DNA of 64,000 bases, taken from Fusobacterium massiliense. Lineage in GTDB: Bacteria; Fusobacteriota; Fusobacteriia; Fusobacteriales; Fusobacteriaceae. The notes below the pieces were generated by a model. That model was not told where the DNA came from. It was given only the letters and a program-made list of their open reading frames with translations, and did no database searches. This document shows positions 7,047 to 63,448 of this stretch, one piece after another (within the stretch, counting starts at the first letter, position 1; every line of letters begins with the position of its first letter). A program made the position numbers and the translations under genes. The stretch covers positions 186,001 to 250,000 of the forward strand of contig NZ_LT608327.1 in NCBI RefSeq assembly GCF_900095705.1, written 5' to 3'.

Positions 7047-7122
7047 AGTCTTCTGACAGCCGTATGAGTTCTCCGAGCTCAATAAACACAGGCTCTTCGA
7101 ACTAATACGGACGTCAGAGACT
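7047..7122 (-). repeat. 76-bp palindromic repeat, copy 1
   Basis: A full copy with outer arms AGTCTTCTGAC and GTCAGAGACT, inner arms CCGTATGAGTTC and GAACTAATACGG, and loop region GAGCTCAATAAACACAGG. The AT-rich flank is present in reverse complement downstream (7131-7153, TATTTAATTTTATACTCTTC). It lies between two divergent genes, mtnN and lpxL, so it is not simply a terminator. Confidence 0.9.
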
Positions 7123-10284: not shown

Positions 10285-10680
10285 GATATTTCTTTTTTCA
10301 TTTTATTACTAGTAGTATTATTTAAATAACTTAAGTATACTATTAATTATTTTAGCAAAAAAATTATTTCTAACAATTTTTTGCTAAATTTTCTATTTCT
10401 TCATATCCATCATAGAACTTATAATAAAATTCACACAGAAGTCAATCCTTATTAGTAAGTTAATATATCCAACTTTTTGAGGTCAGTACAAAATTGGTCT
10501 CTGATATTCGTATTAGTCCGAAGAGCGTGTGTTCATTGAGCTTATAAAACTCAAACAAATGTTGATGGATTTTATTTGTTATTTTATTTATAGAAGATAA
10601 AAATTAGATAAAAATCAAATAAAATACTAGCATATATTGCTAAAATATTATATAATTACAAGATACAAAAGTTTTTTTAA
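10285..10680. other. Gene-free stretch behind the island
   Basis: AT-rich DNA of about 400 bases with no open frame I can support. It contains one degenerate palindromic repeat (10496-10553). I looked here for a second copy of the tRNA-Arg 3' end that would mark the far attachment site and did not see one. Confidence 0.5.
10496..10553 (+). repeat. Degenerate copy of the palindromic repeat
   Basis: The left arm and loop are recognisable (GGTCTCTGATATTCGTATTA, then GAAGAGCGTGTGTTCATTGA) followed by a damaged right arm (GCTTATAAAACTC). The closing ATACGG...AGAGACT is lost. No TATAGGAAAG flank is seen. Confidence 0.7.
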
Positions 10681-22843: not shown

Positions 22844-22940
22844 TATAGGAAAGTATAAAATAAAAGTAAAAATTAGTCTCTGACGTCCGTATTAGTTTGA
22901 AGAGCCTGTGTTCATTAAGCTCGTAGAATATCAAGAGACT
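22844..22940 (+). repeat. Palindromic repeat, copy 2, with AT-rich flank
   Basis: The flank TATAGGAAAGTATAAAATAA (from 22844) is followed by the core at 22875-22940. The left arm is normal (AGTCTCTGACGTCCGTATTA), but about 10 bases are missing from the right arm (GTAGAATATCAAGAGACT), so ATACGGCTG is lost. It follows the aroC terminator immediately. Confidence 0.88.
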
Positions 22941-31619: not shown

Positions 31620-31695
31620 AGTCTCTGACGTCCGTATTAGTTCGAAGAGCTTGTATTCATTGAGCTCCTAGAACTCATACGGATATTAAGAGACA
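31620..31695 (+). repeat. Palindromic repeat, copy 3
   Basis: Full-length core with arms AGTCTCTGACGTCCGTATTA and GAACTCATACGG; the closing arm is altered (ATATTAAGAGACA). The upstream flank is degraded (TTTAAAGTATAAATCTAAAA). It lies between convergent genes (receptor 2 and the permease) and is followed by TTTTTTTATT, so here it would serve as the shared terminator. Confidence 0.88.
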
Positions 31696-44229: not shown

Positions 44230-44345
44230 TATAGGAAAGTATAAAATTAAATAGCAAATAGCAAAAAATAGTCTCTTGACAGCCGTATAAGTTCTACGAG
44301 CTCAATGAACGCAGGCTCTTCGAACTAATACGGACGTCAGAGACT
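44230..44345 (-). repeat. Palindromic repeat, copy 4, with AT-rich flank
   Basis: The flank TATAGGAAAGTATAAAATTA (44230-44253) is followed by the core 44270-44345. The core is in inverted orientation relative to copies 2, 3 and 10 (left arm AGTCTCTTGACAGCCGTAT, right arm ACGGACGTCAGAGACT), while the flank is in the same orientation. The two parts therefore vary independently. A T6 run follows. Confidence 0.92.
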
Positions 44346-52085: not shown

Positions 52086-52108
52086 TATAAGGAAAGTATA
52101 AATTTAAA
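52086..52108 (+). repeat. Solo AT-rich flank of the palindromic repeat
   Basis: TATAAGGAAAGTATAAATTT matches the flank that precedes other copies, but no palindrome follows. It begins 6 bases after the right end of the ISL3 element. It may be the remainder of the original nifJ downstream region, in which a terminator and then this motif are expected. Confidence 0.6.
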
Positions 52109-52209
52109 GAGATATAAATAATATATGTGGTATATATATATATACTAAATAAAAAATAGTGTTTTTTTGAAAAAAATCTTTAAAATAATTAAAAATTTGC
52201 ATCACAAAA

Positions 52210-52235
52210 AGCTCTAATGAAAAATACTCATTAGA
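52210..52235. other. Hairpin at the 3' end of the IS91-like transposase gene
   Basis: CTCTAATGA, a 7-base loop and TCATTAGAG form a perfect 9-bp stem just beyond the transposase stop codon. IS91-type elements carry a subterminal palindrome near the replication end, so this is a candidate; it could also be an ordinary terminator for the minus-strand gene. Confidence 0.45.
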
Positions 52236-52241
52236 GAATTA

Positions 52242-53447
52242 TTAGAAATATACCTTATGTATGGTCCGTCCATACCAATCTGAGCTAACATATATTTCTT
52301 GTATATCCATCATAATTTTACAATAAGGACACATAAATGGATGTACACCAAATGTATCAATAGATTGTTTTACATAAAAAGAATATTCAGATTTAGAAAA
52401 ACTTTTTTTGTATTTCTTAACTATATTTCTTAATTTTGCTGTAATATTGTGCCCATAAAATCCAAATCTATTAATCATTTTAAAATTTTTTGGAGGTAAA
52501 TGGATAAGAATTTGTTGAACAAATTTATCTATATCCATAGTTACATATTTTTTCTTTTTCTCATCAGCTAAATCATTAAAGAAGAAAGTAACTTTTTCAT
52601 TATCATAATAAGTGATTTTGTATTCAGCAATGGGAGCACGAGCGAGATATCTACCTAAATATTTTACAATTCCTTTAGGTGAATTAACATCACCAGAGCC
52701 TACATTAAAGAATAATCTTTTATCTTCTTTATATAATTTAGAAACAGCTTTTTGAGCAAGATTTTTAATTTTAAGATTAGGATAATTACTATTTTGAACA
52801 ATATTAAGGACAAGATACTTTCATTGCCCAGCAATAGAAGGAACATGAAAGTAGTCTAACTTTTTAAAAGTAAAATTTTTGGTAAAGCCACCAAGAGAAA
52901 CAAGAGCATGTATATGTGGATTCCATTTTAGATCTCTGCCAAAAGTATGAATAACAGTGATAAGTCCATAATGAACAATATCAGAATTAGTAAAATAATT
53001 AGGAGAAGATTTAGGAACTTTAAATTTTCGAGCGATTTTTTTGTGCATATTATGAAATTGATATTTCATAACTTCATTAATAGTCTTAGCAAGTTTAGAG
53101 AGTAAAGTTCTATCATAACAAAAAAATGCTCTTAATTCTTCAGGAATAGTAAAAAGAATATGCCTATGAGGAATATTAAGAATATCATTAGTCATCTTTT
53201 GAGTCCAAGTAGCAGAGTATTTAAAACCACAAGAAGGACAAAGTCTAGATTTACAAGTAATAGGAATGGTATGGTAATGTCCACACTCAGTACAAGTATA
53301 TTTAATGAAACCAGTTTTAATATCACGACAAAGTAAGAATTTGTTGATAGAAGCCTTAATATATTCAAAATGTTGTTGAGTTAAAAAAGGGTTGATAAAA
53401 TTAAGAATATGTGATAAATTAACTAGGGATAGTATTTCTTTAATCAT
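52242..53447 (-). pseudogene. IS91-like (Y2/HUH) transposase interrupted by one nonsense codon
   Basis: The minus strand has one continuous frame of about 401 codons broken only by a TGA at 52821-52823 (SIAGQ-stop-KYLVLNIV), where homologues would be expected to have Trp (TGG). The N-terminal zinc ribbon is intact (CTECGHYHTIPITCKSRLCP then SCG). It is followed by IPHRHILFTIP and the metal-binding HUH motif in WNPHIHAL. The part after the stop has GIVKYLGRYLARAPIAEYKI, which carries the catalytic tyrosine region, and FYGHN near the end. Upstream and downstream parts both lack other defects, so the loss is recent, or the copy may be read through. Confidence 0.85.
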
Positions 53448-53502
53448 GAGATATTACTCCTTTCTGTATGTTTTAGTGCAAATAAATTTTACAGAAAAAG
53501 AG

Positions 53503-53550
53503 AGCCAATTGCAAAAGATTTTTTTAAAATCTGCAATTGGCTTTTTTTTT
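53503..53550 (+). terminator. Strong hairpin with T run before the ABC genes
   Basis: AGCCAATTGCA (53503-53513) pairs with TGCAATTGGCT (53532-53542), with further GATTTT/AAAATC pairing inside, followed by ten T residues. It points rightward although no plus-strand gene lies directly upstream. It may insulate the ABC operon from the insertion sequences or be the displaced end of an older transcript. Confidence 0.7.
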
Positions 53551-53577
53551 TAAAGTATATTTCTTTTTAATAAATAT

Positions 53578-55360: not shown

Positions 55361-57085
55361 ATGTTAAATAATTTAAAAATATTATTAGATAAAGATTACA
55401 CTCCTGTAAAAAAAGCTACTTGTTATCAGTTATTAGATATTTTATTTAATATGATAATTTATACTATTTTATTTTTAACAATATATTCACTGATAGAAAA
55501 ATCTTTTACTATGAATAAAATCTATTGCTATTCTGGACTTTTGCTTATAGCTCTTATTTTTAAAAGTTATTTTGGTGGTTGGGCTATGGTTAAAATGCAA
55601 AAAACAGGAAGTACAGCTTCAAAAGATTTAAGAATAGCAATGGGAGACCATGTTAAAAAATTAAATTTAGGTTATTTTAATAGCCATAATTTAGGATATT
55701 TAATTAATATATTAACTATGGATATAACAGATTTTGAACAAGCTGTAACTCATAATATTCCTGATTTATTAAAGGTTTTAGTTTTGAGTATTTATTTGTT
55801 ACTTATAACTTTCTTTATAAATTTTAAACTTGCTATAATTCAAATTATTGTTGTGTTATTGACTATACCTATTCTTAAAATTGGTGGAGAAAAATTGGAA
55901 AAGATTGGGGTAGAAAAGAAAAGTGTTTCTGCTAAATTAATTTCAACTATTATAGAATATATAAGTGGTATAGAAGTTTTTAAAAGTTTTGGGGTTATAG
56001 GAGATAAATTTGAAAGATTAGAAAAGGGATTTAGAGATTTAAAGAAATATTCTATAAAATTAGAGCTTACTGCTGTTCCTTATGTTTTACTTTTTCAAGT
56101 GATTATTGATTTGTTATTCCCTATTCTTTTATTATTAGCAGTTAGGTTTTTTATGAATGGAGAATTGGAAGCTAAAATGTTAGTAGGCTTTATAGTTTTA
56201 AGTTTAACACTTACTAATGTTATAAGAAATTTTTCAGCTAGTTATTCTGTAACAAGATATTTATTTGTTTCAGTTGCTAAAATCTCAGATACTTTAAATT
56301 ACCCAACTATTTCATATAAAGATGAAGATTTTAATTTTTCAAGCTATGATATAAGTTTTGAAAATGTTGACTTCTCTTATACAAAAGATAGAAAAGTTTT
56401 AAAAGATATTAATTTTATAGCAAAGAATAATGAAATTACTGCCTTAGTTGGAAAGTCTGGTTCTGGAAAATCAACTGTTATGAGTTTGATAGCAAGATTT
56501 TGGGATACAACAAAGGGAAGTATAAAAATTGGAGGAAAAGATATAAAAGAAGTTAGTCCTGATTCACTTTTAAAAAATATAGGTATGGTGTTTCAAGATG
56601 TTTATTTAATTAATGATACTATCTATGAAAATATTAGAATAGGTAATTTAAATGCTAGTGAGGAAGAAATTATGAATGCTGCAAAAATAGCAAATTGCCA
56701 TTATTTTATTTCTAAATTACCTAAGGGTTATGATACTTATATAGGTGAAGAAGGAAGTACATTATCAGGTGGAGAAAAACAAAGAATTTCAATAGCAAGA
56801 GCATTATTAAAGAATTATCCAATTATATTATTAGATGAAGCTACTGCTTCTCTTGATGCTGATAGTGAACATGAAATAAAAATGGCTATAAATGAATTAA
56901 TAAAAGATAAGACTGTTATAATTATTGCTCATAGATTGAATACTATAAAAGATGCAAATAAAATAATAGTTATGGATGATGGAAAAATTATTGAAAGTGG
57001 TAATCATGAAAAATTAATGAATGATAAAGGAACTTATTATTCAATGTTTACTGCTATGGAAAAAGCAAAAGAATTTTGTATATAA
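55361..57085 (+). CDS. ABC transporter, fused permease-ATPase, subunit 2
   Basis: A 574-residue partner of subunit 1 with the same layout: six membrane helices, then Walker A GKSGSGKST, VFQDVYL, signature LSGGEKQRI, Walker B IILLDEATASLDAD and H-loop IIAHRLN. All ATPase motifs are canonical, in contrast to the altered D-loop of subunit 1. The two probably form an asymmetric heterodimer. The start follows GGGAGGTGAAATAA at the end of subunit 1. A terminator lies 53 bases behind the stop. Confidence 0.9.
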   Translation: MLNNLKILLDKDYTPVKKATCYQLLDILFNMIIYTILFLTIYSLIEKSFTMNKIYCYSGLLLIALIFKSYFGGWAMVKMQKTGSTASKDLRIAMGDHVKKLNLGYFNSHNLGYLINILTMDITDFEQAVTHNIPDLLKVLVLSIYLLLITFFINFKLAIIQIIVVLLTIPILKIGGEKLEKIGVEKKSVSAKLISTIIEYISGIEVFKSFGVIGDKFERLEKGFRDLKKYSIKLELTAVPYVLLFQVIIDLLFPILLLLAVRFFMNGELEAKMLVGFIVLSLTLTNVIRNFSASYSVTRYLFVSVAKISDTLNYPTISYKDEDFNFSSYDISFENVDFSYTKDRKVLKDINFIAKNNEITALVGKSGSGKSTVMSLIARFWDTTKGSIKIGGKDIKEVSPDSLLKNIGMVFQDVYLINDTIYENIRIGNLNASEEEIMNAAKIANCHYFISKLPKGYDTYIGEEGSTLSGGEKQRISIARALLKNYPIILLDEATASLDADSEHEIKMAINELIKDKTVIIIAHRLNTIKDANKIIVMDDGKIIESGNHEKLMNDKGTYYSMFTAMEKAKEFCI

Positions 57086-57138: not shown

Positions 57139-57186
57139 AGCAATTCATCTCCCACTTTTATAAGTAGGAGATAAATTGCTTTTTTC
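57139..57186 (+). terminator. Terminator after the ABC pair
   Basis: AGCAATT-C-ATCTCC pairs with GGAGAT-A-AATTGCT across a CACTTTTATAAGTA apex, followed by TTTTTTC. Confidence 0.85.
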
Positions 57187-57192
57187 TTGTTC

Positions 57193-57318
57193 TATAGGAA
57201 AGTATAAATTTAATATGAAAATAGTCTCCGACGTCCGTATTACTCTGGAAAGCATTTCGGTGAGCTCGGAAGAGTCATACGGCTGTCAGGTGACTTATAG
57301 GAAATGATAAAATTGAAT
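57193..57318 (+). repeat. Palindromic repeat, copy 5 (divergent, flanks on both sides)
   Basis: The core 57223-57295 is the most diverged full copy, yet it keeps its pairing. Inner arms are CCGTATTACTCT and AGAGTCATACGG instead of CCGTATTAGTTC and GAACTCATACGG, and the outer arms have CC/GG instead of CT/AG. The loop also differs (GGAAAGCATTTCGGTGAGCTC). The AT-rich flank occurs both before (57193-57215) and after (57296-57318, TATAGGAAATGATAAAATTG), in the same direction, so it may be a direct repeat bounding the unit. Confidence 0.88.
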
Positions 57319-57994: not shown

Positions 57995-58016
57995 ACTTCT
58001 CAGATATAATGTAAAT

Positions 58017-58080
58017 AAAAATCCCTGATTTCTACGTGGCTTATAGTATACTTATAAGTCATATCAATATCAGGGTTTTT
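58017..58080 (+). terminator. Terminator after the VanZ-like gene
   Basis: AAAATCCCTGAT (58017-58028) pairs with ATCAGGG (58068-58074) followed by TTTTT; a second small stem (CTTATAG / CTTATAAG region) fills the apex. Confidence 0.75.
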
Positions 58081-58084
58081 ATTT

Positions 58085-58190
58085 TATAGGAAAGTATAAA
58101 TTTAAATGCTTATTAGTCTCTTGATAGCCGTATGAGTTCTACGAGCTCAATGAACACAGGCTCTTCGAACTAATACGGAGGTCAGAGACT
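58085..58190 (-). repeat. Palindromic repeat, copy 6, with AT-rich flank
   Basis: The flank TATAGGAAAGTATAAATTTA (from 58085) precedes the core at 58115-58190, which is in inverted orientation (AGTCTCTTGATAGCCGTATG ... ACGGAGGTCAGAGACT). The core ends 3 bases before the stop codon of the convergent ROK gene, so it would form the 3' hairpin of that minus-strand transcript. Confidence 0.92.
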
Positions 58191-60954: not shown

Positions 60955-61030
60955 AGTCTCTTGACAGCCGTATGAGTTCTACCAACTCAATGAACACAGG
61001 CTCTTCGAACTAATACGGACGTCAGAGACT
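60955..61030 (-). repeat. Palindromic repeat, copy 7
   Basis: Full core (AGTCTCTTGACAGCCGTATG ... ACGGACGTCAGAGACT) with a loop variant ACCAACTCAATGAACACAGG. The AT-rich flank follows in reverse complement (61039-61061, TTTAATTTTATACTTTCCTA). It lies in a divergent region between the MBL gene and the YhdT-panF operon. Confidence 0.92.
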
Positions 61031-61152
61031 AATTTTATTATTTAATTTTATACTTTCCTAATATAATCAAAAAAGTCTTTATAAATAATAAAAAACGTAT
61101 GTTATTTATATTCTCTATATATGTGTATATCTATTTTTATTAAATAAAAGTA

Positions 61153-63160: not shown

Positions 63161-63191
63161 TACACAAACAATCAAAATTGATGTGTGAATA

Positions 63192-63273
63192 ACCATCCAG
63201 AGAAACTGAGGGACTGGCCCTGTGATGTTTCAGCAACCTACTTTATGTGTGGTGCTAATTCCAGAGAGATGGA
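63192..63273 (+). ncRNA. SAM-I riboswitch (S box) aptamer
   Basis: P1 is CCATC (63193-63197) with GATGG (63268-63272). In between are the conserved S-box pieces: CAGAGAAACTGAGGGACTGG, GGCCCTGTGATG, TTTCAGCAACCT, a P3 hairpin around ACTTTATGTGTGGT, and GCTAATTCCAGA with GAGAGATGG. Order and spacing match the SAM-I class, which turns genes off when S-adenosylmethionine is abundant. It leads a methionine ABC importer gene. Confidence 0.93.
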
Positions 63274-63296
63274 GAGGCTATATATTTTTAAATACC

Positions 63297-63328
63297 AATC
63301 CATACTCTCAAAAGGGTATGGATTTTTT
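63297..63328 (+). terminator. Expression-platform terminator of the SAM riboswitch
   Basis: ATCCATAC (63298-63305) pairs with GTATGGAT (63316-63323) across TCTCAAAAGG, followed by TTTTT. An anti-terminator could form from the 3' side of P1 (GAGATGGAG) and the left arm, but I could not fold this in detail. Confidence 0.85.
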
Positions 63329-63339
63329 ATTTATTTATT

Positions 63340-63448
63340 TATAGGAAAGTATAAAATTAAATAAAGAAAATTAGTCTCTGACGTCCGTATTAGTTCGAAG
63401 AGCCTATGTTCATTGAGCTCGTAGAACTCATACGGCTGTCAAGAGACT
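63340..63448 (+). repeat. Palindromic repeat, copy 8, in the metN leader
   Basis: The flank TATAGGAAAGTATAAAATTA (63340-63363) and the core 63373-63448, near-perfect consensus (AGTCTCTGACGTCCGTATTA ... ATACGGCTGTCAAGAGACT). It is located between the riboswitch terminator and the metN start codon, so every metN message must pass through it unless a second promoter exists downstream. Confidence 0.93.

What the first reader, a model, noticed from the sequence alone, without database searches (positions are those of the whole stretch)
57223..57295. Compensatory base-pair changes in the divergent repeat copy
In this copy the inner stem AGTTC/GAACT has become ACTCT/AGAGT, giving three changed pairs (G-C to C-G, T-A to C-G, C-G to T-A) that all stay complementary. 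The last pair of the outer arm changes from T-A to C-G. At the same time the loop sequence has drifted freely. Paired substitutions with a free loop are the signature of selection on the fold rather than on the sequence. The neighbouring CCGTAT/ATACGG block is invariant, so this part may also be read as sequence.
Basis: seen in the sequence. Interest (0 to 1): 0.75.

Follow-up and report, generated by a model that had tools for sequence, protein, structure and literature searches.

The report
Tiny jumping elements behind transcription terminators
The repeat is one of several hundred tiny mobile DNA elements that appear to borrow the rolling-circle transposase of a nearby jumping gene, settle just behind the hairpin stop signals of other genes and carry a look-alike hairpin at their own end, which explains why the hairpin's shape has been kept while its sequence changed.

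Summary
The base-pair changes are real. The copy at 57223-57295 is not a lone drifter: it belongs to a subfamily B (28 sampled copies) beside a larger subfamily A (202 sampled; 178 hairpins in 850 kb of the 1.81 Mb genome). All four A-to-B pair changes stay complementary, and across 133 distinct copies 18 of 25 pairs have two-sided changes. But single copies decay: inside A the inner stem shows 42 mismatches against 5 compensations, and stem and loop diverge alike. The fold was kept in the source lineages, not in each copy.

The repeat is a ~116-bp non-autonomous element. One end (TATAGGAAAGTATAAATTTAA) is the origin-side end of IS91-family elements in the same genome, one of them in this window (52087-53551). 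The other end is the hairpin plus a T-rich tail. Elements sit directly behind intrinsic terminators (51-67% of non-tandem junctions, against 1-17% in flank controls), and so do IS91 relatives in three other genomes, including Hungatella. At metK the element lies behind the SAM-riboswitch terminator; two congeners have the empty site. Most likely the transposase reads "hairpin + T-tract" both as its end signal and as its target. I found no description of terminator targeting by IS91 elements in the papers searched.

The parts
57140..57190 (+). Intrinsic terminator (hairpin plus T tract) behind the ABC-transporter-like ORF 55361-57085; the insertion target
   Evidence: RNA fold -18.3 kcal/mol, z -6.1
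57193..57213 (+). Origin-side end (oriIS-like), TATAGGAAAGTATAAATTTAA
   Evidence: Shared with IS91-family elements in G000 and G019
57223..57295 (+). Subfamily B hairpin, the finding; proposed terIS-like end
57296..57311 (+). Decayed second origin-side end (TATAGGAAATGATAAA) directly behind the hairpin; reads as a head-to-tail insertion
   Evidence: Two mismatches to the motif; 13 of 112 elements sit right behind another element's hairpin
58011..58084 (+). Intrinsic terminator upstream of the second copy
   Evidence: RNA fold -26.1 kcal/mol, z -7.0
58085..58190 (+). Second element: origin-side end at 58085 and subfamily A hairpin 58115-58190 in inverted orientation
63190..63275 (+). SAM riboswitch; its terminator is followed by a repeat element
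   Evidence: RF00162, 65.5 bits; terminator hairpin folds
63340..63448 (+). Element (subfamily A, forward) behind the SAM-riboswitch terminator
52242..53447 (-). IS91-family transposase gene with one in-frame TGA at codon 209; proposed source of transposase
   Evidence: PF04986 110 bits, PF14319 80 bits, NF033538 233 bits
52087..52102 (+). Origin-side end of that IS91 element (ATAAGGAAAGTATAAA)
53503..53551 (-). Ter end of that IS91 element: A tract and hairpin GCCAATTGC...GCAATTGGC, terminator-like and unrelated in sequence to the repeat hairpin
   Evidence: DNA fold -13.7 kcal/mol, z -5.0
7047..7122 (-). Further copy (hairpin), subfamily A
10496..10571 (+). Further copy (hairpin), decayed
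22875..22940 (+). Further copy, hairpin shortened by a deletion, with origin-side end at 22844
31620..31695 (+). Further copy (hairpin), subfamily A
44230..44345 (+). Further copy, hairpin inverted, behind a terminator
60955..61030 (-). Further copy (hairpin), subfamily A; origin-side end at 61047-61062

Best explanation
The repeat is a miniature, non-autonomous element mobilised in trans by an IS91-family (HUH, two-tyrosine) transposase. On the strand taken to move, it reads origin-side end (TATAGGAAAGTATAAATTTAA), a ~10-nt linker, a 73-76-nt hairpin, then a T-rich tail (TTTATTTAT). Shown: the origin-side end is the same as in complete IS91-type elements; copies are intergenic and lie right behind intrinsic terminators; the ter ends of the IS91 relatives are also hairpin plus T tract, with unrelated sequences. 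Inferred: the transposase starts at the origin-side junction, stops when a hairpin followed by a T tract passes as single-stranded DNA, and joins the strand behind another hairpin-T-tract, that is, behind a terminator. Because the hairpin is read mainly as shape, source copies tolerate paired changes, inversion of the hairpin and unrelated hairpins, while inserted copies decay.
For: Origin-side motif found 113 times exactly in the genome (0 for the reversed control) and at the ends of IS91 elements in the same genome and in G019. Transposase family. Of 99 non-tandem junctions 51.5% have an adjacent hairpin of -8 kcal/mol or better, against 0.9% in the 3' flank and 3.7% at other T-tract sites (Fisher 1.2e-8 for the matched T-tract comparison). 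IS91 relatives: 16/16 copies in G019, 9/10 in G040 at -6.5 or better, 6/8 in Hungatella (ends). G026, in another family of the order, has 43 copies with the same origin-side motif, an unrelated hairpin and the same terminator sites (58% against 2%). Empty site at metK in two congeners. 3 of 178 hairpins in ORFs, 159 expected. Head-to-tail copies. Covariation.
Against: No transposition was observed. Every complete transposase copy in this genome has an in-frame TGA, so present activity is unclear. G026 has elements but no recognisable IS91 transposase. A third to a half of junctions have no strong hairpin, and five G026 copies stop at a T tract without one, so the T tract may matter more than the hairpin. 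The repeat's hairpin has no sequence in common with the local IS91 ter hairpin, so cross-recognition is inferred.
Confidence: 0.72

Rival explanations
1. Ordinary structured non-coding RNA or host-useful terminator: the copies are kept by the host as transcription terminators or RNA processing sites, and the compensations show host-level selection on the transcript's fold.
For: Hairpin plus T-rich tail; 78 of 112 elements lie behind the 3' end of a co-directional gene; stable RNA fold.
Against: Paired and unpaired sites decay alike; inner-stem mismatches outnumber compensations 42 to 5; at metK the element was added behind a terminator that congeners have without it; hairpin occurs in both orientations; no Rfam match.
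Confidence: 0.1
2. The compensations are mutational, not selected: template switching during replication corrects one arm of the quasi-palindrome from the other.
For: 19 of 112 elements carry the hairpin inverted between unchanged flanks, as strand switching would give; three neighbouring pairs changed together.
Against: Standing imperfections (T.C mismatch, GT/CT internal loop, A bulge) persist in both subfamilies and would be erased by correction; most single-copy mismatches are left uncorrected; unrelated hairpins with the same architecture exist in G026 and in the IS91 ter ends.
Confidence: 0.17
3. A classical MITE moved by a cut-and-paste DDE transposase through terminal inverted repeats.
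For: At least two copies carry the origin-side motif at both ends (L006, L027); TA-rich junctions; high copy number.
Against: In 112 sampled elements on C6 the motif is on one side only; the motif belongs to IS91 elements, which have asymmetric ends; insertion site is polar (T tract on one side only).
Confidence: 0.05
4. REP-like element moved by a single-tyrosine TnpA (IS200/REP type).
For: Intergenic imperfect palindrome in high copy; single-strand recognition by fold.
Against: Only one 38-residue fragment of Y1_Tnp in the genome; the end motif matches IS91 elements.
Confidence: 0.03

Closest known systems
IS91 family (IS91, IS801, IS1294, ISCR) and their oriIS/terIS ends
   Same: Transposase domains PF14319 and PF04986, NF033538; asymmetric ends that fold (ends described for ISCR/IS91 in PMC13393415)
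   Different: Target here is a T tract behind an intrinsic terminator, not the short GAAC/CAAG-type tetranucleotide I recall for IS91; the repeats carry no gene
Non-autonomous Helitrons (eukaryotic rolling-circle elements)
   Same: Works alike (from own knowledge): short element with an initiation end and a terminal hairpin, moved in trans by an HUH enzyme
   Different: No helicase; bacterial; target is a terminator instead of AT
SPRITE repeats of Streptococcus pneumoniae (PMC3049150)
   Same: Short intergenic repeats, hairpin plus T-rich tract, enriched behind CDS 3' ends
   Different: About 30 copies, AAAA/TTTT ends, no known transposase or origin-side motif; relation not tested
REP/BIME with TnpA_REP; IS elements that target REP (PMC1525189)
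   Same: Palindromic intergenic repeats; IS targeting of hairpins
   Different: Target there is REP and families are IS3, IS110, IS4, IS256, IS5; no intact Y1 transposase here
131-bp intergenic repeat of Fusobacterium nucleatum polymorphum (PMC1924603)
   Same: Multi-copy intergenic repeat in a related genus
   Different: Sequence not available in the text; relation not tested

Membership tests
IS91 family (for the element at 52087-53551) | HUH two-tyrosine transposase with N-terminal zinc-binding domain | tested here: met
   PF04986 1.5e-31, PF14319 9e-23, NF033538 233 bits over cut-off 125; NPHIHA and YLGRY motifs in the translation
IS91 family (for the element at 52087-53551) | Asymmetric ends, each with foldable sequence, no terminal inverted repeats | tested here: met
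   Ends mapped from multiple copies in G019, G040, Hungatella; G000 ends
IS91 family (for the element at 52087-53551) | Short fixed tetranucleotide target at the origin-side end | tested here: not met
   Junction consensus is TTTTTTTATT(C), usually behind a hairpin; the tetranucleotide itself is recalled, not looked up
IS91 family (for the element at 52087-53551) | Rolling-circle, one-ended transposition | not testable with these tools
   Only indirect: tandem arrays with spacing near 1,442 bp in G019 and short G026 forms ending at an inner T tract
Non-autonomous IS91 derivative (the repeat) | Shares a transposase-recognised end with an autonomous element in the same genome | tested here: met
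   21-23-nt origin-side end shared
Non-autonomous IS91 derivative (the repeat) | Shares the other end in sequence too | tested here: not met
   Hairpins unrelated in sequence; only architecture (hairpin plus T tract) is shared
MITE | Two terminal inverted repeats | tested here: not met
   Motif on one side in 112 of 112 sampled C6 elements; both sides in L006 and L027 only
MITE | Target-site duplication | tested here: inconclusive
   3' boundary lies in T/A-rich DNA; no duplication evident at metK
REP moved by TnpA_REP | Y1 transposase in the genome | tested here: not met
   Only a 38-residue fragment
Known structured RNA family | Match to an Rfam model | tested here: not met
   No match at the repeat even at relaxed threshold

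The most novel reading that the evidence does not exclude
A clade of IS91-type rolling-circle transposons found in Fusobacteriota and Firmicutes uses one structural word, a hairpin followed by a T tract, both as its own termination signal and as its target, so that every intrinsic terminator is a landing site and any terminator downstream of an origin end can become a new element end. Hairpin-only satellites of several hundred copies follow, some wired behind riboswitch terminators.
Probability: 0.5. Interest if true: 0.8.

Novelty: new variant of a known kind. Interest (0 to 1): 0.62.

Why it matters
How IS91-type elements choose their end and their target is, as far as I know, not settled, and they have clinical relatives (ISCR elements carry resistance genes). 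Here a natural system with several hundred copies, subfamilies with compensated stems, an empty site and relatives in another phylum makes the question directly testable. It would also explain a class of terminator-like intergenic repeats, perhaps including SPRITE, and shows elements added behind SAM-riboswitch terminators of metK and of the gene after 63340, where an extra hairpin could alter regulation.

Tried and rejected
Rfam search for a known RNA: nothing at the repeat. Exact-pattern scan of the hairpin in 84,980 genomes, blastn in phages and plasmids and the covariance model in six relatives (no positive control in that set): no hits, so the A/B hairpin looks private to this species. 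Per-copy selection on the fold: rejected on the mismatch counts. Classical MITE and REP readings: see rivals. Terminator targeting by IS91 in the literature: nothing found, but the library lacks most subscription journals and ISfinder was not searchable. Orthologue comparison at the window's own locus gave only coding matches.

Full report
What was checked. The hairpin at 57223-57295 is as described. Against the common copies it differs by AGTTC/GAACT to ACTCT/AGAGT and by one outer pair T-A to C-G, all complementary.

Copy number and subfamilies. The window is G000:C6:186001-250000 of a 1.81 Mb genome. A profile search over 850 kb of C6 found 178 hairpins, which scales to about 380 per genome; 230 distinct copies were sampled with loci from other contigs, 202 of type A and 28 of type B. 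The finding's copy is type B. So the paired changes separate two families of copies and were inherited together.

Is the fold selected? On 133 distinct aligned copies 18 of 25 pairs show a change on both sides, 130 cells against 38 in shuffles and 15-20 with slid partners (this alignment is fitted to the model, so it leans towards the structure; the ungapped alignment of 28 gives the same direction). Inside A, pairs 5-72 and 10-66 rank first and second among 2,628 column pairs by corrected mutual information. Yet inside A there are 292 mismatched and 205 wobble cells against 92 double Watson-Crick changes (33 expected by shuffling), and in the inner stem 42 mismatches against 5 compensations; paired and unpaired sites diverge alike. 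A copy that joins a B 5' half to an A 3' half has an unpaired inner stem (L075:10398-10470). The simplest reading is that the fold matters for being copied and not for the fate of a copy once inserted. Template-switch correction is the main neutral rival; the inverted hairpins (19 of 112) show that such switching may happen, but the retained T.C mismatch, GT/CT loop and A bulge argue that correction does not explain the pattern.

What the repeat is. In 112 elements with a recognisable end motif, TATAGGAAAGTATAAA lies on one side only, 29-34 nt from the hairpin in nearly all. The same motif ends complete IS91-family elements of the same genome, one of them in this window with its transposase at 53447-52242. 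Its other end is an A tract plus hairpin GCCAATTGC...GCAATTGGC, terminator-like in both directions, unrelated in sequence to the repeat's hairpin.

Where it sits. The base composition just upstream of the motif is TTTTTTTATT(C). Of 99 non-tandem junctions 51.5% have a hairpin of -8 kcal/mol or better ending 6-14 nt away, against 0.9% in the downstream flank and 3.7% at T6-8ATT sites elsewhere; with a wider hairpin search the figures are 67% for junctions and 17% for the downstream flank. Thirteen more sit directly behind another element's hairpin. Three of 178 hairpins lie in ORFs, 159 expected. The element's own tail is TTTATTTAT behind the hairpin, the same design as the target.

Empty site. 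At metK the element lies behind the terminator of the SAM riboswitch; two other species of the genus have riboswitch, terminator and metK without the element. In this window the copy at 63340 lies behind another SAM riboswitch.

Relatives. In G019 all 16 measured IS91 copies, in G040 9 of 10 and in Hungatella hathewayi 6 of 8 have their origin-side end against a terminator hairpin. Their ter ends are hairpins behind an A tract with different sequences. G026, in another family of the same order, holds 43 copies of a similar mini-element: same origin-side motif, unrelated hairpin (stem ATAAGCTACGC/GCGTAGCTTAT in the 25 copies with both arms), same terminator sites (58% against 2%), and five short forms that end at an inner T tract. 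G026 has no recognisable IS91 transposase. Plasmid records show the closest named transposase in Fusobacterium vincentii, a decayed copy, and the other near ones in Fusobacterium varium, Leptotrichia and Cetobacterium, so the host is most likely a member of the Fusobacteriales (inference; the genome itself is unnamed).

Mechanism. Shown: shared end, polar insertion behind hairpin-T-tract, ter ends of the same design, tandem copies, one empty site. Inferred: rolling-circle transfer of the strand that reads origin end to hairpin, termination at a hairpin-T-tract, joining behind another. Not shown: activity, cleavage sites, cross-recognition of the mini hairpin by the local transposase.

Membership. 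The 52087-53551 element is an IS91-family member by its transposase and asymmetric ends; its target differs from the tetranucleotide I recall for IS91. The repeat is best called a non-autonomous IS91-type element with a non-homologous ter end. It is not a MITE (one-sided motif) and not a REP (no intact Y1 transposase).

Novelty. Hairpin targeting by other IS families is known (REP, PMC1525189), terminator-like repeats are known (SPRITE, PMC3049150), and folded ends in IS91/ISCR are known (PMC13393415). I found no report of IS91-type elements that target intrinsic terminators or of their miniature satellites; the library searched is incomplete.

Noticed in passing
window 52242-53447 (codon 209); L120, L121; G019 loci L096-L116: All three longer IS91 transposase copies in G000 carry the same in-frame TGA at a position that is Trp in G019, while eight near-identical G019 copies carry a TGA at a different position that is Trp in G000. 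Could be read-through control or mobilisation in trans; G019 also has an intact 437-aa version.
   Followed up: partly
L079:17520-17850, L192, L197, L183, L188, L076, L078, L087: A separate ~300-bp repeat (nine copies sampled) with inverted ends AAATTTTAATTT holds the subfamily A hairpin core with its outer stem exchanged as a block to TAGCCCC/GGGGCTA.
   Followed up: partly
L033:1357-1620 and window 63190-63448: Elements sit between a SAM-riboswitch terminator and the regulated gene; the extra hairpin may change metK and transporter expression.
   Followed up: partly
G019:C1:1274754-1280279 (L299): Head-to-tail array of four IS91-type copies at 1,442-bp spacing.
   Followed up: no
L006:1475-1598 and L027: Rare elements with the origin-side motif at both ends in inverted orientation.
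   Followed up: no
L075:10398-10470: Hybrid hairpin, B-type 5' half and A-type 3' half, with an unpaired inner stem.
   Followed up: yes
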